NCBI GenBank assembly: GCA_947581905.1
Contig: CANPWC010000005.1
Span: 1 to 34,095, forward strand
Length of the DNA stretch: 34,095 nt
Direction of reading: 5' to 3'
From: an uncultured Acetatifactor sp.
GTDB taxonomy: Bacteria; Bacillota; Clostridia; Lachnospirales; Lachnospiraceae
Under the pieces are notes generated by a model. That model searched no databases, was not told where the DNA came from, and saw only the letters and a list, made by a program, of their open reading frames with translations. Positions 1,148 to 18,560 of this stretch are shown piece after piece. Numbering within the stretch: the stretch's first letter is position 1; each line of letters begins with the position of its first letter. The translations under genes were made by a program, and so were the position numbers.

Positions 1148-3274
1148 ATGGAGATTACGATGAATCGTGAGAAGCTTTCCGAGTATCGGGAGCGCGCCCG
1201 TAAGCTGGTGGCGCAGATGACCCTGGAGGAAAAGGTGGAACAGACCTTGTATAACGCTCCCGCGATCGAGCGGTTGGGCATCAAGGCCTATAACTGGTGG
1301 AACGAGGCCCTGCACGGCGTGGCGCGGGCGGGCATCGCCACGGTCTTCCCCCAGGCGATCGGGCTGGCGGCCACGTTTGACGAGGATCTGCTTACACAGG
1401 TGGGGGACGCCATATCCACCGAAGCGAGGGCCAAGTTCAACATGCAGCAGGAAAAAGGGGATACCGGCATTTATAAGGGGCTGACCTTCTGGTCCCCCAA
1501 CGTGAACATTTTCCGGGACCCCAGATGGGGGCGCGGCCATGAGACCTACGGGGAGGACCCGTACCTGACCTCCCGGATGGGCGTGGGCTTCATCAAGGGC
1601 ATCCAGGGACATGACGAGAATTACCTGAAGGCGGCAGCCTGCGCCAAGCATGTGGCGGCGCACAGCGGCCCGGAAGGCATCCGGCACAGCTTTGACGCCA
1701 AGGTAAGCAGGCAGGATTTGTTCGAGACCTACCTGCCCGCTTTCAAAGCCTGCATCCAGGACGGCCATGTGGAGGCGGTGATGGGCGCTTACAACTGCAT
1801 CAACGGCGTGCCAAGCTGCGCCAATAAGGAGATCTTCCAGGACATCTTCCGCGGGGAATGGGGGTTTGAGGGGCACGTGGTCAGCGACTGCGGCGCCATC
1901 GAGGACATCCATGCGGGGCACCATATCACGGACACCCCGGTGGAGAGCGCGGCCCTAGCCATGAACAACGGCTGCGACTTAAACTGCGGGCACATGTACT
2001 ATTTCCTGCACCGCGCCCTGAAAGAGGGGATGGTCAAGGAAGAGCGCTTGGATGAAGCCCTGGTCGCCCTGTTCACCTCCCGCATGAAGTTGGGCGTGTT
2101 TGACGAGAAAAAGAAGAATCCTTATGACGACATCCCTTACAGCGTGGTGGACAGCCCTGCCATGCGCGCCTTGAACCGGGACGTGGCTTCTAAGTGCCTG
2201 GTGCTTTTGAAAAATGAAGGGAACCTGCTTCCCCTTGACAAGTCCTCCATCAAGACCGTGGGCGTCATCGGCCCCAACGCCAACAACCGCAAAGCCCTGG
2301 TGGGCAACTACGAAGGCACCGCGTCCCGGTACTGGACGGTGCTGGAAGGCATCCAGGAGTACCTGGGCGACGACGTGCGCGTCCTGGCTTCCGAAGGCTG
2401 CCATTTATATAAGGAAAGAGTGGAAGGGGAAAAGGGCGACCGCCTATCCGAGGTGCGGGGCGTCTGCGACTTAAGCGACGTGGTCATCGTCTGCCTGGGG
2501 CTGGACGCGAGCCTCGAGGGAGAGCAGGGGGACGCCAACAATGAGTATGGAAGCGGCGACAAGCCGACCCTGAACCTGCCCGGGCTGCAGGAAGAGGTGC
2601 TGAAGACGGCGTATGAAAGCGGCAAGCCGGTGGTGCTTTTGCTTCTGTCGGGAAGCGCCCTGTCCGTCAACTGGGCCGATGAGCACATTCCCGCCATCCT
2701 GCAGTGCTGGTACCCTGGCGCGCAGGGAGGGATGGCCATCGCCGAAGCGCTGTTCGGGGACCGCTGCCCGGAGGGCAAGCTTCCGGTGACGTTCTACCGT
2801 TCCACGGAAGAACTGCCTGATTTTACGGATTATAGCATGAAAGGCAGGACATACCGCTACATGAAGCAGGATGCCTTGTATCCTTTCGGCTATGGACTGT
2901 CCTATACGGACTTCGCTTATAGCGACATATGCTTAACGCGCCCGGATGAGGACCCCGGGGCCGCGCTGGTAAGCGCCCGCGTGAAAAATGTGGGAAAATG
3001 CGCCGGCGCGGAGACCGTGCAGGTCTATGTCAAGGTTTGCAAGGAGGGCGCACCGAATTACCAGCTGAAGGGGATCAGCAAAGTGCGCCTTGCGCCGGGG
3101 GAGGAGCGCGAAGTGTCGATCCGCCTGCCCAAGGAGGCGTTCGGGCTGTATGATGAAGAGGGCGTCCTGCGCATCGGGGGAGGCAGGGTCGAGGTCTTCG
3201 TCGGCGGCCAGGCCCCGGATCGGCGAAGCGAGGAACTGACCGGGAAAAAGGTGGCGAAAATCGTCCTGGAATAA
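1148..3274 (+). CDS. Glycoside hydrolase family 3 beta-glycosidase (beta-xylosidase/beta-glucosidase type)
   Basis: This 708-residue protein has the complete GH3 layout: an N-terminal TIM barrel (about 20-300) with YNWWNEALHGVAR at 48-60, FRDPRWGRGHETYGEDP at 122-138 and the KHVAAHSG loop. The nucleophile Asp lies in VVSDCGA (Asp247). A C-terminal alpha/beta domain (about 345-590) carries LEGEQGD near 456, which contains the likely acid/base Glu. A fibronectin-III-like domain starts near 600 (NVGKCAGAETVQVYVK). The YNWWNEALHG motif is typical of Xyl3A-like beta-xylosidases, but related glucosidases and N-acetyl-free exo-enzymes share it, so the substrate stays open. There is no signal peptide, so it is expected to act in the cytosol on imported oligosaccharides. 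Start chosen at 1148: AAGGAGG lies 5 nt upstream, whereas the ATG at 1160 is too far away. It diverges from the CBM9-like gene. Confidence 0.95.
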   Translation: MEITMNREKLSEYRERARKLVAQMTLEEKVEQTLYNAPAIERLGIKAYNWWNEALHGVARAGIATVFPQAIGLAATFDEDLLTQVGDAISTEARAKFNMQQEKGDTGIYKGLTFWSPNVNIFRDPRWGRGHETYGEDPYLTSRMGVGFIKGIQGHDENYLKAAACAKHVAAHSGPEGIRHSFDAKVSRQDLFETYLPAFKACIQDGHVEAVMGAYNCINGVPSCANKEIFQDIFRGEWGFEGHVVSDCGAIEDIHAGHHITDTPVESAALAMNNGCDLNCGHMYYFLHRALKEGMVKEERLDEALVALFTSRMKLGVFDEKKKNPYDDIPYSVVDSPAMRALNRDVASKCLVLLKNEGNLLPLDKSSIKTVGVIGPNANNRKALVGNYEGTASRYWTVLEGIQEYLGDDVRVLASEGCHLYKERVEGEKGDRLSEVRGVCDLSDVVIVCLGLDASLEGEQGDANNEYGSGDKPTLNLPGLQEEVLKTAYESGKPVVLLLLSGSALSVNWADEHIPAILQCWYPGAQGGMAIAEALFGDRCPEGKLPVTFYRSTEELPDFTDYSMKGRTYRYMKQDALYPFGYGLSYTDFAYSDICLTRPDEDPGAALVSARVKNVGKCAGAETVQVYVKVCKEGAPNYQLKGISKVRLAPGEEREVSIRLPKEAFGLYDEEGVLRIGGGRVEVFVGGQAPDRRSEELTGKKVAKIVLE

Positions 3275-3689: not shown

Positions 3690-3718
3690 TTGACAAATTG
3701 TTTAATAAGGCGTATAGT
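3690..3718 (+). promoter_or_regulatory. Main promoter P2 of the solute-binding-protein operon
   Basis: Perfect TTGACA (3690-3695), 17-nt spacer, TATAGT (3713-3718, 5 of 6 matches). The 30 bp just upstream are almost pure A/T with A-tracts, resembling an UP element. This is one of the strongest promoters in the window, fitting the high demand for a binding protein. The predicted start near 3725 gives a leader of about 165 nt. Confidence 0.8.
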
Positions 3719-3891: not shown

Positions 3892-5457
3892 ATGAAGAAG
3901 AAGTCAATCATGAAGTTCTGCGCCATTGCTTTAACAGTGGCAATGATGGGCACTCTGGTTGCTTGCGGCGGCGGCGACACCCCTGCGGATGACTCCAGCA
4001 GCAGCACCGGCACCGGTACGGAAGCCCCTGCGGACAGCACCGGCACAGAGACCCCTGCGGACGAGACAACCCCTGCGGACGATGCGGCTCCTGCGGACGA
4101 CGCAACCGATGATCAGGCTGCAGCCCCTGAGGAGACCTACGATTTCGGCGGCCAGGTCGTCAAGGTTTACGGAGGCGACTGGAACAAGCTGAATCCGGAC
4201 TCCACCGACGACAACACGCTGGCCCTGGATGCGGCAGCCGCTGTTGAAGCGAAGTACAACATCGACCTGGTTTACAACAACCCTGGTGACGATGGATACA
4301 ACCTGGCTGATCTGCTGATCAGCTCCTACAACGCTGGTGAGAGCGCGGTTGACATTTGCGCCGGCACGCCTGACGGCCTTATCTCCCTGATCGGCTCTAA
4401 GGTTATCGCTGACATCACGGATTCTTACCAGGAACTGGAAGTCGGCTCCGTTTACACCGACGCCGTTTCATGGAAGGGTCATGTATATGGCCTGACCTTC
4501 GATAACATCGGCGACGTTTACGTTCTGGCTTACAGCCGTGACTATTTGGATCAGATCGGTATGGAAGTAACCCCTACCGAGAAGTTCATGAACGGCGAGT
4601 GGAGCTATGACGATGTGATCGAGTACTTTACCGAGATGAAGTCCAAACTCCCTGAGGGCGTATATCCTATCGGTACCCATTACTTCCATTGGGCTTGTAT
4701 GGCAGGCGCTGCCAACGGCGGCGTTCCCGCGGTCAGCTCTGACGGCGTGATCGGAATCACGGATGAGCATTACATTGAAGCTATGGAGTTCTACAAAGAG
4801 CTGATGGATCTTGGCCTGGCTGCTCCTATCACTTTCGAGCATGATGATGCCGGCACGATCACGAACGATAATGTTCCTTATGGCTCTGGCGGACTGAACA
4901 CCCAGTATGTGATGACCATGCTGGAGGCTTGGCAGCTTTCCGGTTTGACCGATTCCATCGGCCAGTTCGGCATCACCTTCTGGCCTTGGGGCGATTCCGT
5001 TACCTGTGATGGCGACTACACCACCTTGAGCGACAACTACAAGCTGGCCCAGGCTTACTGGGGACCTTCTTTCGTTATGGCTGACGCTGCCCAGAGGACC
5101 GGCATCGACAACATCACCCTGTTAAAGATCGCTATGGATTACTTTGGCGGACTTGATCCCAACAGGACCACCAAGATGCATGCGGTTTGGGAAGCTGAGC
5201 AGGCTGGCGAGACCCCTGTAATCGGATTTAATGCCGGCGCTGCCAGGGACTTCTGCACCGAAGAAGACATCGCTCTGTATGACTGGGCACACACCAGGGT
5301 CATTTATGAGTGGGCGAAGCCTTTCGATGATGGCGGCGTGCTGAATGTATGGATGAACGCGGCTTACATCATGGATGGCCAGGATGCAAGGAGCACGGCC
5401 GAGAGCTATGCGTCTGAAGGCCTTGCGAAGATGCAGGAAATGGGCATCGTTGACTAA
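3892..5457 (+). CDS. Carbohydrate ABC transporter solute-binding lipoprotein
   Basis: This 521-residue protein starts with a lipoprotein signal (KKK basic start, hydrophobic stretch, lipobox LVAC with Cys25). A low-complexity linker follows to about residue 80, rich in P-A-D-D/T repeats, which would hold the binding domain away from the membrane and through the cell wall. The rest (about 83-520) has the size and look of a family 1 extracellular sugar-binding protein (VKVYGGDWNKLNPD, then alternating Rossmann-like lobes). The start is supported by AAAGGAGG 6 nt upstream. It is the first gene after promoter P2 and is followed by a large hairpin that may raise its mRNA level relative to the permeases. 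It probably delivers ligand to permease pair 2 or pair 1. The ligand is unknown; a beta-mannoside is a guess from the nearby GH130. Confidence 0.9.
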   Translation: MKKKSIMKFCAIALTVAMMGTLVACGGGDTPADDSSSSTGTGTEAPADSTGTETPADETTPADDAAPADDATDDQAAAPEETYDFGGQVVKVYGGDWNKLNPDSTDDNTLALDAAAAVEAKYNIDLVYNNPGDDGYNLADLLISSYNAGESAVDICAGTPDGLISLIGSKVIADITDSYQELEVGSVYTDAVSWKGHVYGLTFDNIGDVYVLAYSRDYLDQIGMEVTPTEKFMNGEWSYDDVIEYFTEMKSKLPEGVYPIGTHYFHWACMAGAANGGVPAVSSDGVIGITDEHYIEAMEFYKELMDLGLAAPITFEHDDAGTITNDNVPYGSGGLNTQYVMTMLEAWQLSGLTDSIGQFGITFWPWGDSVTCDGDYTTLSDNYKLAQAYWGPSFVMADAAQRTGIDNITLLKIAMDYFGGLDPNRTTKMHAVWEAEQAGETPVIGFNAGAARDFCTEEDIALYDWAHTRVIYEWAKPFDDGGVLNVWMNAAYIMDGQDARSTAESYASEGLAKMQEMGIVD

Positions 5458-5494
5458 TTTGTTCCGACACACAACTGAAGTATGATTCATGACG

Positions 5495-5538
5495 CTATGT
5501 GGCTGTTGTCCTGCCTTGCGCAGGCTGCAGTCACATAG
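5495..5538 (+). other. Intercistronic stem-loop after the first binding-protein gene
   Basis: CTATGTGGCTG (5495-5505) pairs with CAGTCACATAG (5528-5538) over 11 bp with one G-U, and CCTGC/GCAGG (5510-5514 with 5520-5524) forms an inner stem. No T-run follows. Such hairpins between a binding-protein gene and its permeases commonly protect the upstream mRNA from 3' decay, giving an excess of binding protein. The GTG start listed in the ORF track at 5499 falls inside this stem, another reason to reject it. Confidence 0.6.
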
Positions 5539-5564
5539 TGCTAAGAAATGGAAGGGCTGATGGG

Positions 5565-8513
5565 GTGAAAAAGAAGAAGAATAGAACCCGCATTCGCAAT
5601 ATAAGCATTCTGGTGGCTCTGATCGTCGTGGCGATCGTGGCCCTGAACATCGCTTCCAGCGACGAATACGCCCAGACGAGGGTGGACGTCCTGGCGAAGT
5701 ACCTGGGCTATGATGATTCTACGGCCGTTACCTATTCGGATTATATGGCGCAGCACTTTAAGGAGTATGTGAGCGACGATGTGGCCGACATTACCGTTAA
5801 GGGCGGCGACTATGCGGAGGCCGACATGGAGGGCATCACCGAGGACGGCGGCATCGTTTGGACGGACGACGAGGGAAGCATCACTTACGGCTTCGACGTG
5901 CCGCAGGCCGGCCTGTACAAGATCCGCCTCACCTATTATCCGGATACCACAGGCACCCAGAGCATATTGCGCAATGTCTATATTAATGGGGATTTACCTT
6001 TTGACGATTGCGAAGATATCACGATCGACCGCCTTTGGGTGGACGACAACAAAGATTGGTTGATGAATGTCAACGGCAACCAGGCCGCTCCCACGCAGGT
6101 CCAGGAAGAGGGACCGGCTGTTGCGTACATTGAATCAAATGACTGCGATACTCTTGGAAGCTATATGTTCTACTTCAACGAGGGGAACAATACCGTGACC
6201 CTGGAGTCTTCGCAGGCGAAGCTGGGGATCAGCGAGATCACGCTGGTGCCCGCCAAGGAATATCCTTCTTATGAGGATTATGTGGATTATTATGAAGATA
6301 CGCTCGACGCCGAAGTCGTGGACGCCAATAACGTTCCGGGCGGCGCGATCATCATCCAGGCAGAGGACAGCACGGTGAAGTCCACCTCTTCCCTGTCTCC
6401 GAACAATGACCGTACTTCCGTGGCGACGCAGCCGTATCACGCTTCCAACATCGTGTACAACACGATCGGCGGAGACAACTGGGCGACGGCAGGCCAGACC
6501 ATCACCTGGACGGTGGAGACTAGGCGCGCAGGCTTCTATAAGATAGCCGTCCGTTTCAAACAGTATTTGAACAGAGGATTTTACTCTGCCCGTTATCTGA
6601 CCATCAACGGAGACCTTCCGTTTGAAGAAGCGGCGCAGATTAAGTTTGATTATGCTCCTGACTGGCAGATCGCTTACCTTGGCGATGAGAATGGGGATTA
6701 TTACTTCTACCTGGATGAAGGCGTGAACACGATTTCCATGACTGCCACCTTGGGAGACCTGGCGGAAGCGGTAGATCTGGCGAGCCAGAGCGTCAACAAC
6801 TTGAATGAGTTGTACCGCGAGCTTACCGCCGTGACCGGGACCAACCCCGACAGGTATCGTGACTATCAGATCACTACTTACGTGCCTAATATGGTGGATG
6901 ACCTGGAAGTGGAGTACACCAGGCTCAACGCCGTAATGCAGATGTTCGGCGAGGACATGGATTCCGCCAACAAGACCTCCAGCGTAGTGGATATGATGAA
7001 CAGCATGATACCGCTGATCAAGAAGCCGGACGATGTGGCGAAAGACCTGACGGACTTCAACGACAAGCTTTCCGCCCTGGGCGACTGGATCAACAGCATC
7101 AACAACCTGCCCCTGGAACTGGATTACCTGATCGTGACCGGGGACGGCTACACCCTTCCGAAAGCGAACGGCAACTTCTTCCAGAACGTTGCCCATACCT
7201 GGAACGCTTTCATCGGTTCCTTCACCAATGACTTCAAGGTACATACCGGGACCTCGGACGGCAGCAAGAAGCAGCTGGACGTGTGGGTAACGGTTGATGT
7301 GAGGAGCCAGTACGACATCATCCAGAAGATGATCAACGCCTCGTTTGCAAACAGCGATTATGAAGTGAACCTGAGCATGGTGCAGGGCGATACGGTCCTT
7401 CCTGCGACGGTTGCCGGCGAAGGCCCTGACGTGGTCTTGCAGTCCAGCTACAGCCAGCCGACCAACTTCGCATACCGCAGCGCGGCTTATGATTTGACGC
7501 AGTTTTCTGATTTTGAAGATGTATTCGCGCGCTTCCCTGCCGGAACGAGGCCGTTCCTGGAGTATGAAGGCGGCGTATATGGGCTTCCTGACCAGCTGTC
7601 CTTCCCGGTGCTGATCTATCGTACCGACATCCTGGACGCTTTAGGGCTGGAAGTTCCTGAGACCTGGGAAGACCTGATCTCCATGGTTCCTTATCTGGAA
7701 GCCGAGAACATGGACGTATACCTGGCAAGTAATGAGTATATGACCTTGGGCGGCGGCACAAGCTCTACCACGGTTCCTGTGAACGCCATCTTCTTATCCA
7801 TGCTGTACCAGCAGGGCTATGAGCTTTACAACGATGCCCATACCTACACCCTGATGGACCAGGTGGACCAGATGAAGGTATTCAAGGAGTGGACCGAGTT
7901 CTACACCAACCAGGGACTGGAGTATTCCGTGAACCTTGTTACCAGGTTCCGTACCGGCGAGATCCCTGTGATGGTGGTTGACTACACGTATATCAATACT
8001 TTGACCGTATCTGCCCCTGAAGTCTCCGGCAAGTGGTCGATCGCGAAGATGCCTGGCACCCGCAAGGCTGACGGCACGGTAGACCATTCCGCGGCCAGCA
8101 TCATCGGCACCTGCTTCATCGTGGCCTCCACGGTGGCGGAAGACGGCATGGCCAATGAAGCCTGGGATTTCTTAAAGTGGTGGACCGACGCGCAGACGCA
8201 GGTGAACTACTCTACAGAGCTTAAGGCGGAGAACGGTGAGGCGGCGGAACTTCCTGTCGCTAATATGGAAGCCATCCAGAATGGCGGCCTGAACGAAGAG
8301 TTCAAGACCGTGGTGCTTTCCATCCTGGGAGACCTGCGCGCTGAGCCTCAGATCCCCGGCGGCTATATCACCGGACGTACGATCAGGAACGCGTTCACTT
8401 CCGTCGTAACTGAGAACTTAGAGCCTGTGGATACGCTCTATATCGAATTGGATGCGATCAACACAGAGATTACCAACAAGCGCAATGAATTTGGCTTGAA
8501 TACGGCAGAATAG
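5565..8513 (+). CDS. Membrane-anchored solute-binding protein with two N-terminal carbohydrate-binding domains
   Basis: I moved the start to GTG 5565 (982 residues): GGAAGGG lies 8 nt upstream and the protein then begins with a basic run and one hydrophobic anchor (ISILVALIVVAIVAL) without a lipobox Cys. Residues about 60-235 and 255-410 are two related beta-rich modules with the matching phrases YINGDLPFDDCEDI and TINGDLPFEEAAQI; the second begins IIIQAEDS, as in CBM6/35-like domains. A mostly helical stretch follows (about 415-560). The C-terminal 400 residues are a family 1 extracellular binding protein (GVYGLPDQLSFPVLIYRTDILDALGL, later AWDFLKWWT). It ends 10 nt before the first permease. 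It probably captures a polymer or large oligosaccharide at the membrane face and hands it to permease pair 1. The fusion to two binding modules is unusual for a binding protein. Confidence 0.85.
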   Translation: MKKKKNRTRIRNISILVALIVVAIVALNIASSDEYAQTRVDVLAKYLGYDDSTAVTYSDYMAQHFKEYVSDDVADITVKGGDYAEADMEGITEDGGIVWTDDEGSITYGFDVPQAGLYKIRLTYYPDTTGTQSILRNVYINGDLPFDDCEDITIDRLWVDDNKDWLMNVNGNQAAPTQVQEEGPAVAYIESNDCDTLGSYMFYFNEGNNTVTLESSQAKLGISEITLVPAKEYPSYEDYVDYYEDTLDAEVVDANNVPGGAIIIQAEDSTVKSTSSLSPNNDRTSVATQPYHASNIVYNTIGGDNWATAGQTITWTVETRRAGFYKIAVRFKQYLNRGFYSARYLTINGDLPFEEAAQIKFDYAPDWQIAYLGDENGDYYFYLDEGVNTISMTATLGDLAEAVDLASQSVNNLNELYRELTAVTGTNPDRYRDYQITTYVPNMVDDLEVEYTRLNAVMQMFGEDMDSANKTSSVVDMMNSMIPLIKKPDDVAKDLTDFNDKLSALGDWINSINNLPLELDYLIVTGDGYTLPKANGNFFQNVAHTWNAFIGSFTNDFKVHTGTSDGSKKQLDVWVTVDVRSQYDIIQKMINASFANSDYEVNLSMVQGDTVLPATVAGEGPDVVLQSSYSQPTNFAYRSAAYDLTQFSDFEDVFARFPAGTRPFLEYEGGVYGLPDQLSFPVLIYRTDILDALGLEVPETWEDLISMVPYLEAENMDVYLASNEYMTLGGGTSSTTVPVNAIFLSMLYQQGYELYNDAHTYTLMDQVDQMKVFKEWTEFYTNQGLEYSVNLVTRFRTGEIPVMVVDYTYINTLTVSAPEVSGKWSIAKMPGTRKADGTVDHSAASIIGTCFIVASTVAEDGMANEAWDFLKWWTDAQTQVNYSTELKAENGEAAELPVANMEAIQNGGLNEEFKTVVLSILGDLRAEPQIPGGYITGRTIRNAFTSVVTENLEPVDTLYIELDAINTEITNKRNEFGLNTAE

Positions 8514-8523
8514 GAGGGTGAAC

Positions 8524-9459
8524 ATGGCTAAAGCGAAATATCAGATTTCAATGAAAAGACGAGTTCAGTTGATTCTCCGAGACATGAAGAGGAGCATTCC
8601 TTTGTACATCATGATTGCTCCGTTCATGATTCTGTTCGCGGTCTTCGTGGTTTATCCCGTGTTAAAGGCTGTCTGGTACAGCTTCACGGATTACAACGTG
8701 TTGGAAGCGGCGAATTTCGTCGCATTGGGTAACTACCGTAAGCTGTTCTTGGACGACAGCATTTTCATCACTGCAATTAAGAATACGTTCATCATTGCAG
8801 TCATCGTGGGTCCCGGCGGATATATCCTTTCTTATCTGCTTGCCTGGATGATCAACGAGCTGCCCCATACGATCGGCACGGTCCTGACGGTTATCTTCTA
8901 TGCGCCCAGCATGGCCGGTTCCGCCGTTATTACAGTATTTGCTCAGATTTTCTCCAACGATAGCAATGGTTATTTGAACGCCGCCCTCCGCAACCTGGGG
9001 ATCACGCAGGAAGCGATCCTGTGGCTGTCCGATGAGAAATACGTCATCGTGGTCGTCATCCTGGCTTCCCTGTGGATGAGCATGGGCGTTGGCTTCCTCT
9101 CCTTCGTGGCAGGCATCAAGGGCGTTGACGAGGCCCAGTACGAGGCGGGTGCTATCGATGGCATCAGAAACCGTTGGCAGGAATTGTGGTATGTCACACT
9201 TCCTAATATGAAGCCGCAGCTATTGTTTGGCGCAGTCATGACCATTACGAGCTCCCTGTCCGTTGGTTCGGTGGGCGACTCCCTGGTCGGCTTCCCCAGC
9301 CCGAACTACGCTTCCCATACGATCGTCAACCACTTGAACGACTATGGTTCCATCCGTATGGAGATGGGTTACGCGTCAGCAATCGCGGTGATCTTGTTCC
9401 TGATCATGATCATAGCGAACATGCTCATCCAGAAGCTGCTTCGTAAAGTCGGAACCTAA
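8524..9459 (+). CDS. Sugar ABC transporter permease, MalF/UgpA type (pair 1, first subunit)
   Basis: This 311-residue integral membrane protein has about six predicted helices (IPLYIMIAPFMILFAVFVVYPV near residue 25). Its C-terminal EAA loop (YEAGAIDGIRNRWQELWYV) contacts the ATPase. I prefer ATG 8524 over the tracked GTG 8518 because TAGGAGG abuts the GTG but sits 6 nt before the ATG. It starts just after the CBM-fused binding protein and 19 nt before its partner permease, so the three are co-translated. It forms the transmembrane channel with the next gene. No ATP-binding subunit is encoded nearby, so a shared MsmX/UgpC-like ATPase from elsewhere is expected. Confidence 0.93.
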   Translation: MAKAKYQISMKRRVQLILRDMKRSIPLYIMIAPFMILFAVFVVYPVLKAVWYSFTDYNVLEAANFVALGNYRKLFLDDSIFITAIKNTFIIAVIVGPGGYILSYLLAWMINELPHTIGTVLTVIFYAPSMAGSAVITVFAQIFSNDSNGYLNAALRNLGITQEAILWLSDEKYVIVVVILASLWMSMGVGFLSFVAGIKGVDEAQYEAGAIDGIRNRWQELWYVTLPNMKPQLLFGAVMTITSSLSVGSVGDSLVGFPSPNYASHTIVNHLNDYGSIRMEMGYASAIAVILFLIMIIANMLIQKLLRKVGT

Positions 9460-9478
9460 GCGGGGAGGAAGAGTGAAT

Positions 9479-10405
9479 ATGGCAGTGATTCAGAATTTAT
9501 ATCAAAAGCATTTACAACGTAAAAAGTCCAACGACTTTACACCGTTCGTGAAGAAGTCGCAGAGAAGCTTCTGGGGCAATGTGATCCTGTTCTTGTTCCT
9601 GATCCTGATGGGCGTTGTATTCTTCTTCCCGGTAATTTACATGGTAAGCCAGTCCTTGAAGCCGATGAACGAAATGTTCATCTTCCCTCCCAGGATCATC
9701 GTTTCCAACCCTACCATGGACAACTACCGTGACTTTGTAAACGTCTTGGCGAATACCGTGGTACCGGTCACCAGGTCCTTGTTCAATTCCTTGTTCGTGG
9801 TGGTGGTCGGTTCGGTCGGACATATCGTGATCGCGTCCCTGTGCGCCTATCCTTTGGCAAAATATAAGTTCCCCGGGTCTGCGTTCTGTAACCAGTTGAT
9901 CGTCTATTCCCTGATGTTCAACGCTACAGTTACCATGATCCCCAACTTCTTGACCATCGCCGGTTTAGGAATGTTGGATACCCAGTGGGCGATCATCATC
10001 CCCGGCTTCGCTTCCACCCTGGGCCTGTACCTGATGAAGAACTTCATGGAGCAGATCCCTGACAGCTTGATGGAAGCGGCCCAGATCGACGGCGCCGGAT
10101 ATGTTCGGATTCATTTCACTATTGTCATGCCGGTAGTAAAGCCCGCCCTGGTGACGGCGTTCATCCTGGTGTTCCAGGCTTTCTGGACCAACACAGGCGA
10201 CAAGTTCATCTATACCGAGGCGAACAAGGGCTTTGCTTATGTAGTACAGCAGTTGGCGAGCGGCAGGATCAGCGGTGTAGGAAGCTCCTATGCAGGCATC
10301 TCCTCCGCGTCCGCGGTAATCATGTTTGCCGTTCCCCTGGTCGTGTTCCTGATCATGCAGAACAACGTGGTATCTACAATGGCAACATCTGGTATGAAAG
10401 AATAA
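9479..10405 (+). CDS. Sugar ABC transporter permease, MalG type (pair 1, second subunit)
   Basis: This 308-residue membrane protein of the carbohydrate permease family has an N-terminal helix FLFLILMGVVFFFPVIYMVSQ and the EAA loop EAAQIDGAGYVRIHFTIVMPV, typical of MalG-like subunits. The track begins at GTG 9473. I chose ATG 9479 because the same GTGAA(T/C)ATG arrangement occurs at the previous permease, but the spacing to GGGAGG (4 nt to the GTG, 10 nt to the ATG) leaves the choice open. It pairs with the preceding permease and is followed after 10 nt by the Yip1/NHL gene. Confidence 0.93.
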   Translation: MAVIQNLYQKHLQRKKSNDFTPFVKKSQRSFWGNVILFLFLILMGVVFFFPVIYMVSQSLKPMNEMFIFPPRIIVSNPTMDNYRDFVNVLANTVVPVTRSLFNSLFVVVVGSVGHIVIASLCAYPLAKYKFPGSAFCNQLIVYSLMFNATVTMIPNFLTIAGLGMLDTQWAIIIPGFASTLGLYLMKNFMEQIPDSLMEAAQIDGAGYVRIHFTIVMPVVKPALVTAFILVFQAFWTNTGDKFIYTEANKGFAYVVQQLASGRISGVGSSYAGISSASAVIMFAVPLVVFLIMQNNVVSTMATSGMKE

Positions 10406-10415
10406 GAGGTGGCGT

Positions 10416-12494
10416 ATGCAAAAATCAAACAAGATTTGGAGTAAGTTCGTCCCAATGCTTGCTCTTGTAATATGTGCCATCCTTGGATTTGGCACGGTGT
10501 CCTATGCAGCCGAATCCTATTCATATGACATCTGGGGCAACGTTACCGCTGCACCCGCGGCTTATGAATTGGAAAAGACGATATATGCCAGAGACCTGGG
10601 CCTGGACAGTATGTCAACCGTATCGAACATATTCTATCGAAATGACAAGGTTTACCTGGTCTTAAATGGTTATATCGTAATTGCTGATAAGGAATTTGAG
10701 AATGTGGATTACATCACGGAGTACACGAAGGAAGACGGCAGCCAGGTCGCGATCGGCGCCCCGTCCGGACTGTTCGTGACGGAGGATGGACATATCTACA
10801 TTTCAGAAGAGTCCAGAGGCGAGATCATTGAGTTCGATGAGAATTACAATTATGTGCGTTCTTTGGGCGACCCCCACTGTACCGGATTGACCGTGGCCTA
10901 TCGGCCCAACAAGATCGCGGTGGACAGCGTGGGACGTATCTATGTGCTGATCACCAACTGTTACGAAGGCTTTGCGGAATTGGATCCGGAGGGCAACTTC
11001 AACCGTTATGTGGGCGCTACGGAAGTCACCTACAGCCTGTGGGACCTGTTCTGGCGTTCCATCGCTACGGAAGAGCAGTTGGCACGTAGCGAATTGTGGC
11101 TGCCTACCACCTACAGCGACCTGGCGATCGACAACAATGGCTTCATCTTCGCCAGCGTTGGCGGCGGCGGCGTGGAAGAACCGATCAAGAAGCTGAATTC
11201 TTCCGGTGAGAACGTCCTTTCCATGAGCGATTTCATCGAGTACCCCATGGGCGACTATGAGAACAAGGCTTCTATTTCCAACTTAAGCCGTATCGCGGTG
11301 GCGGACGACGGAAGGTTCGCGGTCCTGGATGCGACCCGTTCCAGGATATTCGTCTACAGCAGCGACGGTTATCTGATGTATGAGCTGGCCGGCAGCGGCG
11401 ACGCGGAAGGCTTGCTTCGTTCCCCGGTAGGCCTGTGCTTCATGGACGACAAGATCTTAGTCATCGACATCGTGTACCAGTCCGTTGAAGTCTACATCCC
11501 TACGACTTATGGTTCTTTGATCAATTCCGGCTTGGAGGCCCAGTCCCGCTATGATTATGCGACGGCGGCGGATTACTGGACCCAGGTGCTGGACATCAAC
11601 AGCAATTTCTATTATGCGAACCTTGGATTAGGCAAGTACCAGATGCGTTCCGGCGAGTATGAAGAGGCTATGGATAACTTCTACAAAGGCGCTGACAGGT
11701 CTTACTATTCCAACGCGTACGACAGGGTTTCCGGCGAATGGATGGACAACAATTTCGCGACCATCCTGGGCATCATAGCCGTGCTGATCGTCCTGTTTGT
11801 CGCATACAAGATTTATCGTCACTTTAGGCCCGCGCAGCCTAAGGATACCAAGCTTCGCAGGTTCTGGGAGAAGACGAAGTTCACGCTCTTCAAATGGCCC
11901 GCTTATGTATTGTCCAGCCCGTTCAAGGCATTTGACGATGTGAAGTATTATAATGACGGTTCCCTGGCATTCAGCATCATCGTCATCATCGCGTTCGGCT
12001 GGATCAGCCTGATCAAGTATCGTTATTCAGGCTTCCTGGTGTCCTTTGTGGACATTAGTTATGTAAACGTACCGCTTATCGTCGGCAGCGCGATCTTGCC
12101 TTATATCGCGTTCATCATCGGCAACTGGGCGGTAGGCGTGCTCCTTTCCGGTAAAGGTAAAGTCGTGCACATCATCAAGGTCGTGGGTTATTCCCTCTAC
12201 CCGGCATGCTGGCTCTACCTGGCTGGAACGTTCCTTTCCAACCATGTGACGCAGGATGAAGCGGCCCTGGTGAATGCCCTGTTCGTGTTCGGCATGGTGC
12301 TGTTCTTCTTCTACATGTTCATTGGGACGATCATGGTGCATCAGTATACGTTTACGAAGAATGTGGCTACCTTGCTGTTGTCCGTAGTCGCAATCTTGAT
12401 CATTTGTTTCGTAGCAATGTTGTTCGCGACTCTTCTCGGACAGTTCGTCAATGATGTTTTGGAAATCGTTCGAGAGTTCCGCATGCTTGTGTAA
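10416..12494 (+). CDS. NHL-propeller/TPR protein with C-terminal Yip1 membrane domain
   Basis: In this 692-residue protein, residues 1-31 form a signal peptide ending near VSYAA. About 40-365 contain repeated NHL/SMP-30-like blades (GLFVTEDGHIYISEESRGEI, KIAVDSVGRIYVL, RIAVADDGRFAVLDATRSRI, GLCFMDDKILVIDI), predicting a six-bladed propeller outside the cell. About 370-440 look like one or two TPR helices (YANLGLGKYQMRSGEYEEAM). A transmembrane helix lies at about 449-466 and a Yip1-family domain with about five helices fills the last 200 residues. RBS AGAGG is 6 nt upstream. It lies between permease pair 1 and the DUF5696 gene. Proteins of this build recur in Firmicutes sugar operons beside DUF5696 proteins, by my recollection; their role is not established. 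A scaffold that links the surface glycan apparatus to the permease is an inference. Confidence 0.8.
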   Translation: MQKSNKIWSKFVPMLALVICAILGFGTVSYAAESYSYDIWGNVTAAPAAYELEKTIYARDLGLDSMSTVSNIFYRNDKVYLVLNGYIVIADKEFENVDYITEYTKEDGSQVAIGAPSGLFVTEDGHIYISEESRGEIIEFDENYNYVRSLGDPHCTGLTVAYRPNKIAVDSVGRIYVLITNCYEGFAELDPEGNFNRYVGATEVTYSLWDLFWRSIATEEQLARSELWLPTTYSDLAIDNNGFIFASVGGGGVEEPIKKLNSSGENVLSMSDFIEYPMGDYENKASISNLSRIAVADDGRFAVLDATRSRIFVYSSDGYLMYELAGSGDAEGLLRSPVGLCFMDDKILVIDIVYQSVEVYIPTTYGSLINSGLEAQSRYDYATAADYWTQVLDINSNFYYANLGLGKYQMRSGEYEEAMDNFYKGADRSYYSNAYDRVSGEWMDNNFATILGIIAVLIVLFVAYKIYRHFRPAQPKDTKLRRFWEKTKFTLFKWPAYVLSSPFKAFDDVKYYNDGSLAFSIIVIIAFGWISLIKYRYSGFLVSFVDISYVNVPLIVGSAILPYIAFIIGNWAVGVLLSGKGKVVHIIKVVGYSLYPACWLYLAGTFLSNHVTQDEAALVNALFVFGMVLFFFYMFIGTIMVHQYTFTKNVATLLLSVVAILIICFVAMLFATLLGQFVNDVLEIVREFRMLV

Positions 12495-12512
12495 GTGAGG
12501 AGGCGAAAGAAA

Positions 12513-15077
12513 ATGAGAAAGAGAAAAGCATTGTTATACTCAGTTATGACGGCTCTTTGCCTTACACTATTGGGAGGCTGCTCCTCTTCCGACGCGGACG
12601 CGACCACCGATACGGGGACGCAGGAAAGCTATTGGGAGAACCAGCAGTATGATTCCTTTACGGGATCCGATTTCGTGGAGGTGGCGTCTAGCGGAGACAT
12701 GAGGCTTTTGCTGAATCCCGAGTCCGGCACCATCCGTTGGATGGACGCTGCGACAGGCGCCTATCAGGACACCAATATGAGCCACAGCGAGGGGATGCAG
12801 AACCTCTCCAACCGTCAGCGTTCTGACGTGGTCGTGACTTATTTCTCCGGCACCAAGAAGAATAATGTGTTATATAACACGACTTCCAGTTATGATTCAT
12901 TTTCCATGTGCGTCGACTTAGGGCAGCTTAGCTACCAGAAGATCGATAACGGCGTGCGCATCATCTATAACATGGGAAATGACGACATTACCTACAAGAA
13001 CTTCCCGCTGCGTATTTCTGATGAGCGTATGCAGGAATTCGTCCTCCAGTACTTGGATGAATCCCAGATCGCCCTGATGAAAGGCTATTATGCACAGCTT
13101 AGTGATGGCAGATGGCAGAGGAGCTTTAACACCAACGACCAGAACAAGATCGGCCCTATGGCGTTAAGGGAAATTGAGAACTTCTTCTATAACATTGGTA
13201 CTTATACCATCGATGAGCTGTACGTGGATTTGGAAACAGAAGGCGTCGATCCTGCGGAATATCCTGGCAACCTGTTCATCCGCGTCCCCGTGGAATATTA
13301 CCTGGAAGGGGAGCAGCTGGTAGTGAACGTGGATACCAAGATGATCGAGACCGGCGCTGACAACCCGATCAACAAGATTGACCTGATCCCTTATTTCCTG
13401 ACCTCCGCGGCAGACCAGGATCTGGAAGATGGCTACATGTTCATCCCGGACGGCAGCGGCGCCCTGATTTACTTAGACAGCGACAAGGTCAAGGAATACC
13501 ACTTCGCTGGAACCTATTACAACGGGGATAAGCTGGTTGACGCCACGGTTTACAGCCAGCCAAAGAGCATGATGCTTCCCGTGTTCGGCATGAAGACTTC
13601 CAACAGCACCATTTTCGGCGTGATCGAGAACGGCGCGGAAGTGGCTACCATGGATGCTTACGTGAGCGGGCAGGATAACTCCGAGCCGTTCTGCAAGGTG
13701 AAGTTAAGCTTCGACATCCAGACGCAGCAGAAGCCTTCTACCGGCGCTTCCAGCGGCTCCGCTTCGAACTTTGACCTGTACAAGGCGACCTCGGACGTGT
13801 ATGACGACAACATCACCCTCCGTTATTATTGGCTGGGCGAAGACGCGGACTACGTCGACATGGCGAACTGCTATGCGGATTACCTGGAGACGAAGGGCAT
13901 GGCGTCTGAGCAGGCGGAGGACGAAGCCCCGTTCTATGTAGAGCTGATGGGCAGCACGGATAAGACCCAGTTCATGCTGGGGATCCCTTACAAGGGCAAG
14001 CAGGCCCTGACCACATTCGACCAGGCGAAAGAGATCCTGACCGATCTGACGGGCTTGGGCATTAAGAATGTGAAGCTGATCTACACCGGCATGGTCAACG
14101 GAGGCATGAACCAGCGCGCCTTGACCGACGGCGTGAAGCTGGCATCCGGCCTGGGCGGAAGCTCGGCATGGAAGAGCTTAAAGAGCTACGCGGATTCCGT
14201 AGGCGCACAGATATTCCCGAACGTCACGCTCCAGACGGCCCATACCAAGAAAGGCCTCTCAAAGAGCGTCGTGGCTTGGGACATCGTGAACCAGCGGGCG
14301 CAGATTTATGATTTCGACCCTGTGAAGAGGGAAGTGGACGAAGAGGATGAGTATCCGGTATTCGTCATCAACCCGAATTACCTGGGCAAGTACCTTTCCA
14401 AGGCGAAGACGTCTTATACCAAGAAGATTGGCTTAAGCACGATGGCGTCTGACGACTTCTTCTCCTTCATCCCGACCAATTACCAGGCTACGGAGGTTTC
14501 TCCTTCCACCGGTAAGGCGATCATGAATGAAGTCGCGGCACAGATGACCGATGGCTTGACTTTGATGTTGTCGAACCCGATCGGTGATGCGTACGCTTAC
14601 TCCAATTACTTGACGGATATTCCGACGGAAGACAGCGGCATGAGGATTTTGGATGCCTCCATTCCTTTCATCGAGATGGTCCTGGATGGCCGTAAGACCT
14701 ATTCTTCCGAATCCCTGAACCTGGAGAGCACGGATGTATACGCGAACTTCATGCATGTGCTGGAAGGCAACAGCGTACCGAAGTTCACGTTCATGTATGG
14801 CGACAGCTCGCTGTTGTCCAAGACGAAGCAGGAAGACCGTTTCGCGGTGGACTACAGTTATTGGAAAGACCGGATCGGCGCGTACTATGACGAATACCAG
14901 AGTTTCCATAATGCCGTGAAAGGCGCTGTCATCGTGGAGCATGAGTTGTATGAGCGCAATGAGTATCTGCGCGTGGTAACTTATTCCAACGGAGTCAAGG
15001 TATACTTCAACTACAGCGATCTGGATGAGACGATAGATGGAGTGGCGGTTCCGGCTCTCAGCTATGTCATTAAGTAA
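12513..15077 (+). CDS. DUF5696-family surface lipoprotein
   Basis: Start moved to ATG 12513 (854 residues), because the GAGGAGG ribosome site lies inside the tracked ORF and 9 nt before this ATG. The N-terminus is a lipoprotein signal with lipobox LLGGC (Cys about 23). The first half is beta-rich (MRLLLNPESGTIRWMD, then PDGSGALIYLD). The second half, from about 480, has the rhythm of a TIM barrel (GIKNVKLIYTGMVNGGM, GAQIFPNVTLQTAH, GLSTMASDDFFSF, RILDASIPFIEMVLDG), recalling distant glycoside hydrolases. I assign DUF5696 from memory of these phrases. No catalytic pair can be named with confidence. It is expected on the outer face of the membrane. It lies between the Yip1/NHL gene and permease pair 2, so it may trim or bind the glycan before import. 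Confidence 0.75.
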   Translation: MRKRKALLYSVMTALCLTLLGGCSSSDADATTDTGTQESYWENQQYDSFTGSDFVEVASSGDMRLLLNPESGTIRWMDAATGAYQDTNMSHSEGMQNLSNRQRSDVVVTYFSGTKKNNVLYNTTSSYDSFSMCVDLGQLSYQKIDNGVRIIYNMGNDDITYKNFPLRISDERMQEFVLQYLDESQIALMKGYYAQLSDGRWQRSFNTNDQNKIGPMALREIENFFYNIGTYTIDELYVDLETEGVDPAEYPGNLFIRVPVEYYLEGEQLVVNVDTKMIETGADNPINKIDLIPYFLTSAADQDLEDGYMFIPDGSGALIYLDSDKVKEYHFAGTYYNGDKLVDATVYSQPKSMMLPVFGMKTSNSTIFGVIENGAEVATMDAYVSGQDNSEPFCKVKLSFDIQTQQKPSTGASSGSASNFDLYKATSDVYDDNITLRYYWLGEDADYVDMANCYADYLETKGMASEQAEDEAPFYVELMGSTDKTQFMLGIPYKGKQALTTFDQAKEILTDLTGLGIKNVKLIYTGMVNGGMNQRALTDGVKLASGLGGSSAWKSLKSYADSVGAQIFPNVTLQTAHTKKGLSKSVVAWDIVNQRAQIYDFDPVKREVDEEDEYPVFVINPNYLGKYLSKAKTSYTKKIGLSTMASDDFFSFIPTNYQATEVSPSTGKAIMNEVAAQMTDGLTLMLSNPIGDAYAYSNYLTDIPTEDSGMRILDASIPFIEMVLDGRKTYSSESLNLESTDVYANFMHVLEGNSVPKFTFMYGDSSLLSKTKQEDRFAVDYSYWKDRIGAYYDEYQSFHNAVKGAVIVEHELYERNEYLRVVTYSNGVKVYFNYSDLDETIDGVAVPALSYVIK

Positions 15078-15089
15078 GGAGGGACAAAG

Positions 15090-16040
15090 ATGAAAAAAGG
15101 TGAAAATAAGGCAGTTAAGAAGAAAGCCTTTAGTTTGTCCTATAAGAAGTTGGATTATGAGAAAAAGACTGCCGTATGGGGCGTGATCTTCCTGCTTCCC
15201 TGGCTTCTTGGCTTGATCTTCTTCTTCCTGCGCCCTTTGGTAAACACCGTTTGGTATTCCCTCTGCAGCATGCAGATGGTGGATGGCAAGTTTACCGGGA
15301 CTTTCACAGGCTTAAACAATTTCAAGTATGCCCTGACGGTAAATGCGGACTTCACGCAGTACCTGGCGGAGGCATTCCTCAACATGCTTAAGGAAGTGCC
15401 GTTCCAAATCTTCCTGGCCCTGTTCATTGCAATGCTGCTGAACGGTGAATATAAGGGAAGAGGCTTCTTCCGCGCGATATTCGTCATCCCCATCATCCTG
15501 GCGACCGGCGTGGCGACCTTTAGCTTGAGCGAGACCAGCCTGGCGGTAACCGAGTCCGAAACCGTCATGGATATGCAGTGGCTGACGGACCTGGTCGTAA
15601 ACTCCGGTATTCCGACGGAGCTGACCAGCCTGCTGACAAGTTATGTTGAGAACATTTTCACGGTGGTGACTACCTGCGGCGTGCAGATCTTGCTCTTCCT
15701 GTCCGGCCTGCAGGCCATCTCCCCGACCCTGTATGAGGTGGCTCAGATGGAGGGCTGTACGGCGTTTGAGACTTTCTGTAAGATCACGCTGCCCATGGTA
15801 TCCCCTACCATCCTGGTTTGCCTGGTTTACAGTATCGCGGAATCTTTCGCGAACGCGAAAGTGTCCGTAGGCCAGCAGACAGTAGCGCTTTCCTCTTACA
15901 TCCATGACGTCACATTCACCGGCGACCCGATGTACTATGGTTATGGTTCCGCGATGAGCTTCATCTATTTCGCGGCCACCCTGGTCACAATCGGCGTGAT
16001 TTGCGGCATCGTTTCCAAGGGGGTGTTCTATTATGACTAA
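15090..16040 (+). CDS. Sugar ABC transporter permease, MalF/LplB type (pair 2, first subunit)
   Basis: This 316-residue membrane protein opens with a basic cytosolic segment, then AVWGVIFLLPWLLGLIFFFLRPLVNTVWYS, the signature opening of MalF-like permeases. The EAA loop is EVAQMEGCTAFETFCKITLPMV, with Cys replacing the usual Gly-Ala stretch. A TAAGGAGGG site lies just ahead of the ATG. The gene overlaps the next permease by 8 bp (ATGACTAA), a sign of translational coupling. It follows the DUF5696 gene by 12 nt. Its binding-protein partner is not adjacent; the first lipoprotein of the operon is the likely one. Confidence 0.92.
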   Translation: MKKGENKAVKKKAFSLSYKKLDYEKKTAVWGVIFLLPWLLGLIFFFLRPLVNTVWYSLCSMQMVDGKFTGTFTGLNNFKYALTVNADFTQYLAEAFLNMLKEVPFQIFLALFIAMLLNGEYKGRGFFRAIFVIPIILATGVATFSLSETSLAVTESETVMDMQWLTDLVVNSGIPTELTSLLTSYVENIFTVVTTCGVQILLFLSGLQAISPTLYEVAQMEGCTAFETFCKITLPMVSPTILVCLVYSIAESFANAKVSVGQQTVALSSYIHDVTFTGDPMYYGYGSAMSFIYFAATLVTIGVICGIVSKGVFYYD

Positions 16041-17097
16041 ATTGACCAGAAAAGAAAGAATGCAAAAAGCCGAAGAAATGGCCGGCATTAGCTTTTGGGT
16101 TGACCTGCGGAAAGGACGTCTGTCCAAATACGCCATCCAAAAGAAGGTCAGGAATTTCATCATGTTGTTCTTCCGTTATGCGATCCTGATCTGCCTGGGC
16201 TTCGTGGTGATCACGCCCTTATGGAAGCTGGCCAAGGACGCTTTGACGGATCCTAACGTGCTGGCCGATAAGTCCAGTATCTGGATCCCCCAGAAGACGT
16301 CCGGACTGTTCCTTGACATGGCGATGTCCAAACAGCTTTTGAACTATTGGGGAAGCTTAGGTTATACCTTGCTTACCACCGCCATCCTTACTTTCCTGCA
16401 GGTCCTTTCCGCAGGTCTGGCGGCTTACTCGTTCGCGAGGCTGAAGTTCAAGGGCAACAACATTTTGTTCTTCTTCGTAGTCCTGACGATCGTCGTTCCC
16501 AGCGACGGCATCATGCTGGCGCAGTATGCGGCGTTCCGTAACTTCGATATCTTCGGGCTCATAGGATTGATTACCGGGCATGGGCTGAACCTGATCGGCA
16601 AGCCCTCATCCCTGTACATCCTGTCCGGCCTTGGCATGGGCGTAAAGAGCGGTTTGTATATTTACTTCCTGCGCCAGGGCGTCAAGGGCCTGCCAATCTC
16701 CATCGAGGAGGCGGCCCATGTGGACGGCGCCGGATTCCTGCGCACTTTCTTCAGCATCGTGGTGCCCAGCATGTCCGGTTCCATCCTGACCGTGTCTGTT
16801 TTGAGCTTCCTGTGGAATTATACGGATACCTATTATAAGGGACTGTTCCAGTTGGGAAGCAAGAACCTGGTATACAACTACTCGACCTTGCAGTCTAATA
16901 TCAGGTGGGGCATTGACGCGGCCGCGAGGACCAATCAGGCTTGGTTGGAGCAGGTGAACCCCTCCAGCCCGTTCATCCAGAATTCTACGATTTCTGCTTG
17001 CGCCCTGTTGGTCGTGTTACCGTTGTTGATCATGTATTGCTTCGTTCAGAAGCGTTTCGTCCAGGGCGCTGCCAGAAGCGGTCTTGGCGGAGATTGA
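16033..17097 (+). CDS. Sugar ABC transporter permease, MalG type (pair 2, second subunit)
   Basis: This 354-residue membrane protein has an N-terminal cytosolic tail of about 40 residues and is longer than pair-1 MalG (308). The first helix is FMLFFRYAILICLGFVVITPLW and the EAA loop is EEAAHVDGAGFLRTFFSIVV. Translation starts inside the stop region of the previous gene. It is the last gene of the transporter cluster; inverted repeats follow within 70 bp. Together with the previous gene it makes a second complete permease pair in one operon, again without an ATPase. Confidence 0.92.
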   Translation: MTKLTRKERMQKAEEMAGISFWVDLRKGRLSKYAIQKKVRNFIMLFFRYAILICLGFVVITPLWKLAKDALTDPNVLADKSSIWIPQKTSGLFLDMAMSKQLLNYWGSLGYTLLTTAILTFLQVLSAGLAAYSFARLKFKGNNILFFFVVLTIVVPSDGIMLAQYAAFRNFDIFGLIGLITGHGLNLIGKPSSLYILSGLGMGVKSGLYIYFLRQGVKGLPISIEEAAHVDGAGFLRTFFSIVVPSMSGSILTVSVLSFLWNYTDTYYKGLFQLGSKNLVYNYSTLQSNIRWGIDAAARTNQAWLEQVNPSSPFIQNSTISACALLVVLPLLIMYCFVQKRFVQGAARSGLGGD

Positions 17098-17139
17098 TCT
17101 TTTGCACTACTTAGTCCTACAGTTTGGCAAGTTATTGGC

Positions 17140-17165
17140 GGTGCCGGGAGCCATATCCCGGCATC
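17140..17165 (+). terminator. Hairpin after the transporter operon
   Basis: TGCCGGGA (17142-17149) pairs perfectly with TCCCGGCA (17156-17163), extended by a G-U and a G-C pair, with a 6-nt loop. The following sequence (GCTTCTTGCGCTTT) is only moderately T-rich, so termination is probably partial and the GH130 gene may be reached by read-through. Confidence 0.5.
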
Positions 17166-17184
17166 GCTTCTTGCGCTTTCATGA

Positions 17185-18445: not shown

Positions 18446-18560
18446 CGCCGGAGGATAGGGCTGGCATGCGGATCTGTTGAGGGAGGATGTCCGCAAAAGG
18501 AATGGTATCTGCAGGGAGCGGGGGCATCAAAAACTTTAACCTAAAACGAGGATGGATGGA

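What the first reader, a model, noticed from the sequence alone, without database searches (positions are those of the whole stretch)
3892..17097. Eight-gene operon with two permease pairs, a Yip1/NHL membrane protein and a DUF5696 lipoprotein, but no ATPase
Gene order is binding protein, CBM-fused binding protein, MalF, MalG, Yip1/NHL, DUF5696, MalF, MalG. The gaps from the second gene to the last are tiny or overlapping. Two complete import channels flanking two surface proteins of unknown function suggests one coordinated glycan capture-and-import apparatus rather than two unrelated transporters. Neither DUF5696 nor the Yip1/NHL protein has an established role that I know of.
Basis: partly seen in the sequence, partly recalled or inferred. 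Interest (0 to 1): 0.68.

Follow-up and report, generated by a model that had tools for sequence, protein, structure and literature searches.

The report
Conserved double-importer operon for plant glycans
Many gut and soil bacteria carry, often in several copies, an undescribed but strictly conserved operon that couples two sugar-import channels, powered by an ATPase encoded elsewhere, to two odd surface proteins, which points to one shared device for taking up plant-wall sugars.

Summary
Eight same-strand genes (3892-17097) encode a lipoprotein SBP, a CBM-fused tethered SBP, MalF1/MalG1, an NHL-TPR-Yip1 protein, a DUF5696 lipoprotein and MalF2/MalG2, with no ATPase. This is a recurrent unit. 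All five DUF5696 copies in this genome, and all 80 further loci read as far as contigs allow, carry the same set. In 399 Bacillota genomes DUF5696, the Yip1 part and MalF2 occur in exactly the same 41. Their copy numbers track each other, up to 19 per genome. In some families the gene order is rotated or shuffled with the set nearly always complete. All four permeases keep EAA coupling loops, and the genome has one orphan MalK/MsmX-type ATPase. DUF5696 has the GH129/GH101 glycosidase fold without NagBb's LHLDGW aspartate; activity is unresolved. Neighbours are mannan, xyloglucan and beta-glucan enzymes. Best reading: two ATPase-sharing importers working as one hemicellulose-oligosaccharide uptake unit. 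Physical assembly is inferred. Pair 1 relatives can stand alone in one family, with their own ATPases. No held paper mentions DUF5696.

The parts
3690..3718 (+). Promoter-like site upstream of the operon (TTGACA, 17 nt, TATAGT)
   Evidence: 11 of 12 consensus matches; consensus only, not proof of function
3892..5457 (+). SBP1: stand-alone solute-binding lipoprotein (lipobox LVAC)
   Evidence: aligned with upstream genes of other cassettes, 24/41 of which are SBP_bac_1; 63 of 70 complete cassettes have a second SBP nearby and the 7 others have truncated flanks
5499..8513 (+). SBP2: membrane-tethered solute-binding protein with two CBM35/golvesin-like domains at the N-terminal side
   Evidence: one N-terminal TM; internal repeat E 8e-10; 23/25 relatives hit SBP_bac_1
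8518..9459 (+). MalF1 permease (block A)
   Evidence: BPD_transp_1 E 3e-13; EAA loop found in 76/76 relatives
9473..10405 (+). MalG1 permease (block A)
   Evidence: BPD_transp_1 E 4e-9; EAA loop found in 76/80
10416..12494 (+). NHL-TPR-Yip1 protein: signal peptide, extracellular NHL beta-propeller, TPR, one TM, then a multi-TM Yip1 domain (two separate genes in most other loci)
   Evidence: Pfam NHL and Yip1; AF2 pLDDT 80.6; Foldseek NHL propellers
12495..15077 (+). DUF5696 lipoprotein (lipobox LGGC) with GH129/GH101-like fold
   Evidence: PF18952 E 8e-136; AF2 pLDDT 86.5; Foldseek 5opq E 3e-31
15090..16040 (+). MalF2 permease (block B)
   Evidence: E 2.7e-114 to the cassette MalF2 profile; EAA loop EVAxxEG
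16033..17097 (+). MalG2 permease (block B)
   Evidence: BPD_transp_1 E 1e-5, just under cut-off; EAA loop found in 76/78
17138..17167 (+). Hairpin after MalG2, possible terminator
   Evidence: 12-nt arms, 92% complementary, 6-nt loop
17359..18357 (+). GH130 beta-mannoside phosphorylase, the likely catabolic partner
   Evidence: Pfam GH130 E 1e-69; GH130 follows other cassettes too
1148..3274 (+). GH3 glycosidase upstream, probably in the same pathway
   Evidence: Pfam GH3

Best explanation
The operon is a coordinated glycan-import unit built from two ATPase-less CUT1-type importers. Block A is SBP2 (tethered, two CBM-like domains) with MalF1/MalG1. Block B is the NHL-TPR-Yip1 protein and the DUF5696 lipoprotein with MalF2/MalG2. 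A stand-alone lipoprotein SBP (SBP1) completes it. Shown: all parts are inherited together, in many copies per genome, with coupling loops intact in both pairs and one orphan MalK/MsmX-type ATPase in the genome. Inferred: both pairs are powered by that shared ATPase. SBP2's CBMs and the GH129-fold DUF5696 protein hold hemicellulose fragments at the membrane. The NHL-Yip1 protein is the membrane scaffold that keeps the parts together. The fragments, in this locus probably beta-mannosides, enter through one or both pairs and are broken down by the neighbouring GH130 and GH3 enzymes.
For: 5/5 cassettes in this genome. 80/80 related loci, truncations at contig ends apart from two loci with parts missing inside the contig. 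The same 41 of 399 genomes carry DUF5696, Yip1 and MalF2. Copy numbers match across 8 multi-copy genomes. The set is kept when order changes in L121, L125, L133 and L134. Distance matrices of the eight parts correlate at 0.92-0.97. EAA loops in all four permeases. Single orphan OB_MalK ATPase. Second SBP at every cassette with enough flank. Neighbouring GH26, GH130, GH35, GH2, GH5 and CBM65 genes. Shared MsmX-type ATPases are established for such importers (PMC5730181, PMC7658222).
Against: No direct evidence of a physical complex or of transport. Linked inheritance alone would also give correlated distance matrices. MalF1-type permeases occur without the rest in one family, with their own ATPases, and L123 has a detached MalG2. 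Two pairs with two SBPs could equally be two independent importers.
Confidence: 0.52

Rival explanations
1. Two ordinary importers for two breakdown products of the same polysaccharide are kept in one operon for co-regulation, each with its own SBP (SBP2 with pair 1, SBP1 with pair 2). NHL-Yip1 and DUF5696 are accessory surface binders. There is no joint machine.
For: Two SBPs match two pairs. The genes fall into two blocks that swap order. Both pairs have intact EAA loops. MalF1 and MalF2 are long diverged.
Against: Independent importers should be lost or exchanged separately, yet pair 2, Yip1 and DUF5696 are never seen apart in 399 genomes, although the neighbouring enzymes suggest several different glycans.
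Confidence: 0.3
2. Block B is not a nutrient importer. It is an ATP-driven partner device that uses the importer fold to do mechanical work on or sense the load of the DUF5696 and NHL proteins, handing glycan chains to pair 1.
For: Block B never occurs without DUF5696 and the NHL-Yip1 protein, whereas pair 1 relatives can stand alone. MalF2 has an unusual, conserved EVAxxEG loop. MalF1 is much more conserved than MalF2 (63 vs 46% mean column identity).
Against: No direct evidence. SBP1 is available as an import partner. MalG2 has a canonical EAA loop.
Confidence: 0.12
3. DUF5696 is an active exo-glycosidase that trims captured glycans at the surface before import; the rest is a normal importer.
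For: GH129/GH101 fold. An aspartate near where DagB's catalytic Asp486 (equivalent to NagBb Asp435, PMC5698469) should fall, window D654, is kept in 49/59 relatives.
Against: The aspartate of NagBb's LHLDGW strand is absent from all 59 relatives. D654 is replaced by T, N or S in 10/59. The D654 equivalence is an estimate from spacing, not a structural superposition.
Confidence: 0.2

Closest known systems
CUT1-type ABC sugar importers energised by a shared MsmX/MsmK ATPase (B. subtilis AraNPQ, GanSPQ, YtcQP-YteP, YesOPQ; PMC5730181, PMC7658222)
   Same: MalF/MalG permeases with EAA loops, lipoprotein SBP, no ATPase gene in the operon, one orphan MalK-type ATPase in the genome, glycosidase neighbours
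   Different: Two permease pairs and two SBPs in one unit, plus NHL-Yip1 and GH129-fold proteins that these systems lack
GH129 glycosidases and relatives (NagBb; DagB/ZgGH129, PMC5698469) and GH101
   Same: Predicted full-length fold: N-terminal beta-sandwich, TIM barrel, C-terminal Ig-like domain
   Different: About 10% identity, a separate Pfam family, LHLDGW aspartate missing, membrane-anchored and tied to ABC permeases
Yip1-domain membrane proteins
   Same: Yip1 Pfam domain in 19/19 relatives
   Different: Joined or linked to an extracellular NHL propeller and TPR, inside a sugar-transport operon

Membership tests
CUT1-type ABC importer, permease pair 1 | BPD_transp_1 domain and EAA coupling loop | tested here: met
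   Pfam above cut-off; EAA 76/76 MalF1 and 76/80 MalG1
CUT1-type ABC importer, permease pair 2 | BPD_transp_1 domain and EAA coupling loop | tested here: met
   Pfam 25.1 and 25.4 bits, just under the 26.4 cut-off; EAA 75/78 MalF2 and 76/78 MalG2
CUT1-type ABC importer | solute-binding protein | tested here: met
   SBP2 in every complete cassette; second SBP in 63/70, the rest with truncated flanks
MsmX-dependent importer | no ATPase gene in the operon, one shared MalK-type ATPase elsewhere | tested here: met
   one OB_MalK protein in the genome, not next to permease genes
MsmX-dependent importer | uptake is lost when the ATPase is deleted | not testable with these tools
   needs genetics
GH129 (for DUF5696) | overall fold | tested here: met
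   Foldseek 5opq E 3e-31, TMt 0.69; NagBb TMt 0.70-0.74; GH101 next
GH129 (for DUF5696) | match to the GH129 Pfam family PF11308 | tested here: not met
   the window protein hits only PF18952 at E<=0.001; PF11308 found in none of 200 Bacillota genomes or the controls
GH129 (for DUF5696) | catalytic acidic residues | tested here: inconclusive
   LHLDGW aspartate absent in 59/59; a candidate Asp435 equivalent, D654, in 49/59 by rough spacing only
Yip1 family | Yip1 domain above curated cut-off, several TM helices | tested here: met
   30.1 vs 28.6 bits, 19/19 relatives; five hydrophobic stretches

The most novel reading that the evidence does not exclude
The eight proteins form one membrane assembly, a dual-engine importer: two ABC permease pairs are bridged by the NHL-Yip1 protein and fed by a GH129-fold, non-hydrolysing glycan binder and tethered SBPs, so that large hemicellulose fragments are taken up cooperatively.
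Probability: 0.3. Interest if true: 0.85.

Novelty: new variant of a known kind. Interest (0 to 1): 0.64.

Why it matters
About a tenth of the sampled Bacillota genomes carry this unit, and some carry 8 to 19 copies. It may therefore be a main glycan-uptake route in many Lachnospiraceae and Paenibacillus relatives, yet no paper in the held library mentions DUF5696. If the two permease pairs work together, this would be an importer architecture not described for ABC systems as far as the held library shows, and it gives first roles to DUF5696 and to a bacterial Yip1 protein. Co-occurrence makes the idea directly testable with a few gene removals in a Paenibacillus laboratory strain.

Tried and rejected
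DUF5696 as a sequence-level GH129 member: rejected, only the fold matches. DUF5696 as certainly catalytically dead: not claimed, because one candidate acid is mostly kept and no structural superposition was possible. Pair 2 as degenerate permeases: rejected, EAA loops intact. Pair 1 and pair 2 as a recent tandem duplication: rejected, they are long diverged. Missing parts in related loci as real losses: most are contig ends. Chance clustering: excluded by recurrence. A search of GH129 proteins in Bacillota to fix the catalytic columns found none.
Full report
OBSERVATION. The window has eight consecutive + strand ORFs from 3892 to 17097, with gaps of 41, 4, 13, 10, 0 and 12 nt and an 8-nt overlap. 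Pfam gives BPD_transp_1 for pair 1, sub-threshold BPD_transp_1 for pair 2, NHL for the fifth gene and DUF5696 (E 8e-136) for the sixth. The Yip1 domain is recognised once the C-terminal 205 residues are scanned alone. SBP1 and SBP2 of the window have no SBP Pfam hit of their own; relatives of both do. None of the 20 main window proteins scanned by Pfam is an ATPase. A good promoter-like site precedes SBP1 and a hairpin follows MalG2. No tRNA or Rfam family was found.

RECURRENCE IN THIS GENOME. The genome (2.35 Mb draft) has five DUF5696 genes. All five lie in the same set: SBP2, MalF1, MalG1, NHL-Yip1 (two genes in two cases), DUF5696, MalF2, MalG2, with 22-28% identity of the other four DUF5696 copies to the window's. 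They are old paralogues with different enzyme neighbours.

RECURRENCE ELSEWHERE. A scan of genome contigs found 564 relatives; the 80 best (Lachnospiraceae, Butyrivibrio, Paenibacillus, Cohnella, other Clostridia) were kept with 10 kb flanks. With profiles built from the five home cassettes, 66 of the 81 loci in this tally (the window and the 80) have the complete set in the same order. The rest are cut by contig ends, except L032, where DUF5696 is not found in the stretch held, and L067, where SBP2 and MalF2 are not found as intact ORFs. Cassette permeases score 125-517 bits to their own role, other permeases nearby about 55-130.

REVERSE TEST. In 399 Bacillota genomes sampled without regard to this operon, DUF5696 (E<1e-50), cassette Yip1 (E<1e-25) and cassette MalF2 (E<1e-50) were found in the same 41 genomes, with no discordance. 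Of 66 listed DUF5696 genes, 64 have Yip1 immediately upstream and 59 have MalF2 immediately downstream; the exceptions lie in multi-copy or fragmented genomes where listings were capped or contigs end. Re-running eight such genomes without caps gave closely matching copy numbers for DUF5696/Yip1/MalF2: 10/10/10, 19/17/16, 8/8/9, 2/2/2, 11/10/8, 10/10/9, 4/4/4 and 3/3/4. MalF1 was found in the 41 genomes and 7 more at E<1e-60. Three of the 7 are SBP2-MalF1 pieces on 3-4 kb contigs (L135, L140, L141), where the rest of the set could simply be unassembled. Four, all one family, are a different operon: MalF1-MalG1 with two MalK-like ATPases and, in three of them, a separate tandem CBM35/CBM6 protein related to SBP2's CBM part, with no DUF5696 or pair 2. 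Block A's permeases can therefore stand alone; block B was never seen to.

ORDER CHANGES. In L125, L133 (one family) and L134 (another) the two blocks are swapped: NHL-Yip1, DUF5696, MalF2, MalG2, then SBP2, MalF1, MalG1. In L121 the order is scrambled but the set is present. Retaining the set while the order changes is stronger evidence for shared function than fixed order alone. One locus, L123, lacks MalG2 beside MalF2; a homologue lies roughly 15-25 kb away on the same contig. Distance matrices of the eight parts correlate at 0.92-0.97 over 66 loci, as expected for joint inheritance; linkage alone could give this too.

PARTS. All four permeases keep the EAA loop. MalF1 is far more conserved than MalF2 (63% against 46% mean column identity). 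SBP2 has one N-terminal TM helix and an internal repeat of CBM35/golvesin-like domains (E 8e-10) before the SBP. A second SBP lies at 63 of 70 complete cassettes and the other seven have short flanks. The genome has one OB_MalK ATPase, not next to permease genes, as for MsmX-type multitask ATPases (PMC5730181, PMC7658222). NHL-TPR-Yip1 models as a propeller, TPR helices and a helical membrane part (pLDDT 80.6).

DUF5696. The model (pLDDT 86.5) matches GH129-type enzymes over its full length: DagB 5OPQ E 3e-31 and NagBb 5WZN about 1e-22, then GH101. A profile search agrees at E about 1e-5. The aspartate of NagBb's LHLDGW strand is never D or E among the six commonest residues of that column in 59 relatives apart from none seen in the listing. 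DagB keeps only Asp486, equivalent to NagBb Asp435, of NagBb's two catalytic residues and is still active (PMC5698469), so loss of one acid does not prove inactivity. By spacing, window D654 is a candidate for that residue; it is kept in 49 of 59 and replaced by T, N or S in 10. I therefore call catalysis unresolved, leaning to a binding role.

SUBSTRATE. Genes after other cassettes include GH26 (9 of 81 scanned), CBM65 (13), GH130 (6), GH35 (4), GH42 (4), GH2, GH3 and GH5. The set therefore serves hemicelluloses in general; the window's GH130 and GH3 suggest beta-mannosides.

MECHANISM AND JUDGEMENT. Shown: a conserved unit of two ATPase-less permease pairs, two SBPs, NHL-Yip1 and a GH129-fold protein. 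Inferred: a shared ATPase powers both pairs, the surface proteins hold glycan fragments, and NHL-Yip1 bridges the pairs. The main rival, two co-regulated importers, cannot be excluded. No held paper mentions DUF5696 or PF18952; subscription papers and preprints were not searchable, so novelty is stated with that limit. The taxonomic spread outside Bacillota was not surveyed.

Noticed in passing
L136-L139 (e.g. L139:8798-16658): In one family (G007, G050, G087, G117) MalF1/MalG1 relatives sit with two different MalK-like ATPases, mostly a tandem CBM35/CBM6 protein related to SBP2's CBM part, and a beta-galactosidase-like binding-domain protein, with no SBP recognised; an unusual importer-like operon.
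   Followed up: partly
L132:3862-6721: MalG1 of this cassette is split by a 442-aa ORF that looks like an IS110-type transposase.
   Followed up: partly
L123:2180-8748: Cassette without an adjacent MalG2; a 1864-aa protein follows MalF2 and a MalG2 homologue lies elsewhere on the same contig (G378:C17:133471-134412).
   Followed up: partly
G077, G037, G058, G125: Up to 19 DUF5696 matches in one genome of about 3 Mb, a striking expansion.
   Followed up: partly
window 27516-30248: 910-aa protein with EF-G/ribosomal-protection-type domains fused to a YacP-like NYN RNase domain.
   Followed up: no
window 30319-32841: TPR repeats joined to DUF4037 and DUF4125 in one 840-aa protein.
   Followed up: no
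window 18552-21392: 946-aa transglutaminase-domain protein between GH130 and a LacI regulator; transglutaminase proteins follow other cassettes too (2 of 81 genes scanned).
   Followed up: no
L031, L046, L047, L066, L071, L075, L083, L087, L089 (gene before SBP2): A gene of about 215-270 aa before SBP2 in these Lachnospiraceae-type cassettes; 9 of the 41 upstream genes scanned are DUF624 (YesL-like).
   Followed up: no
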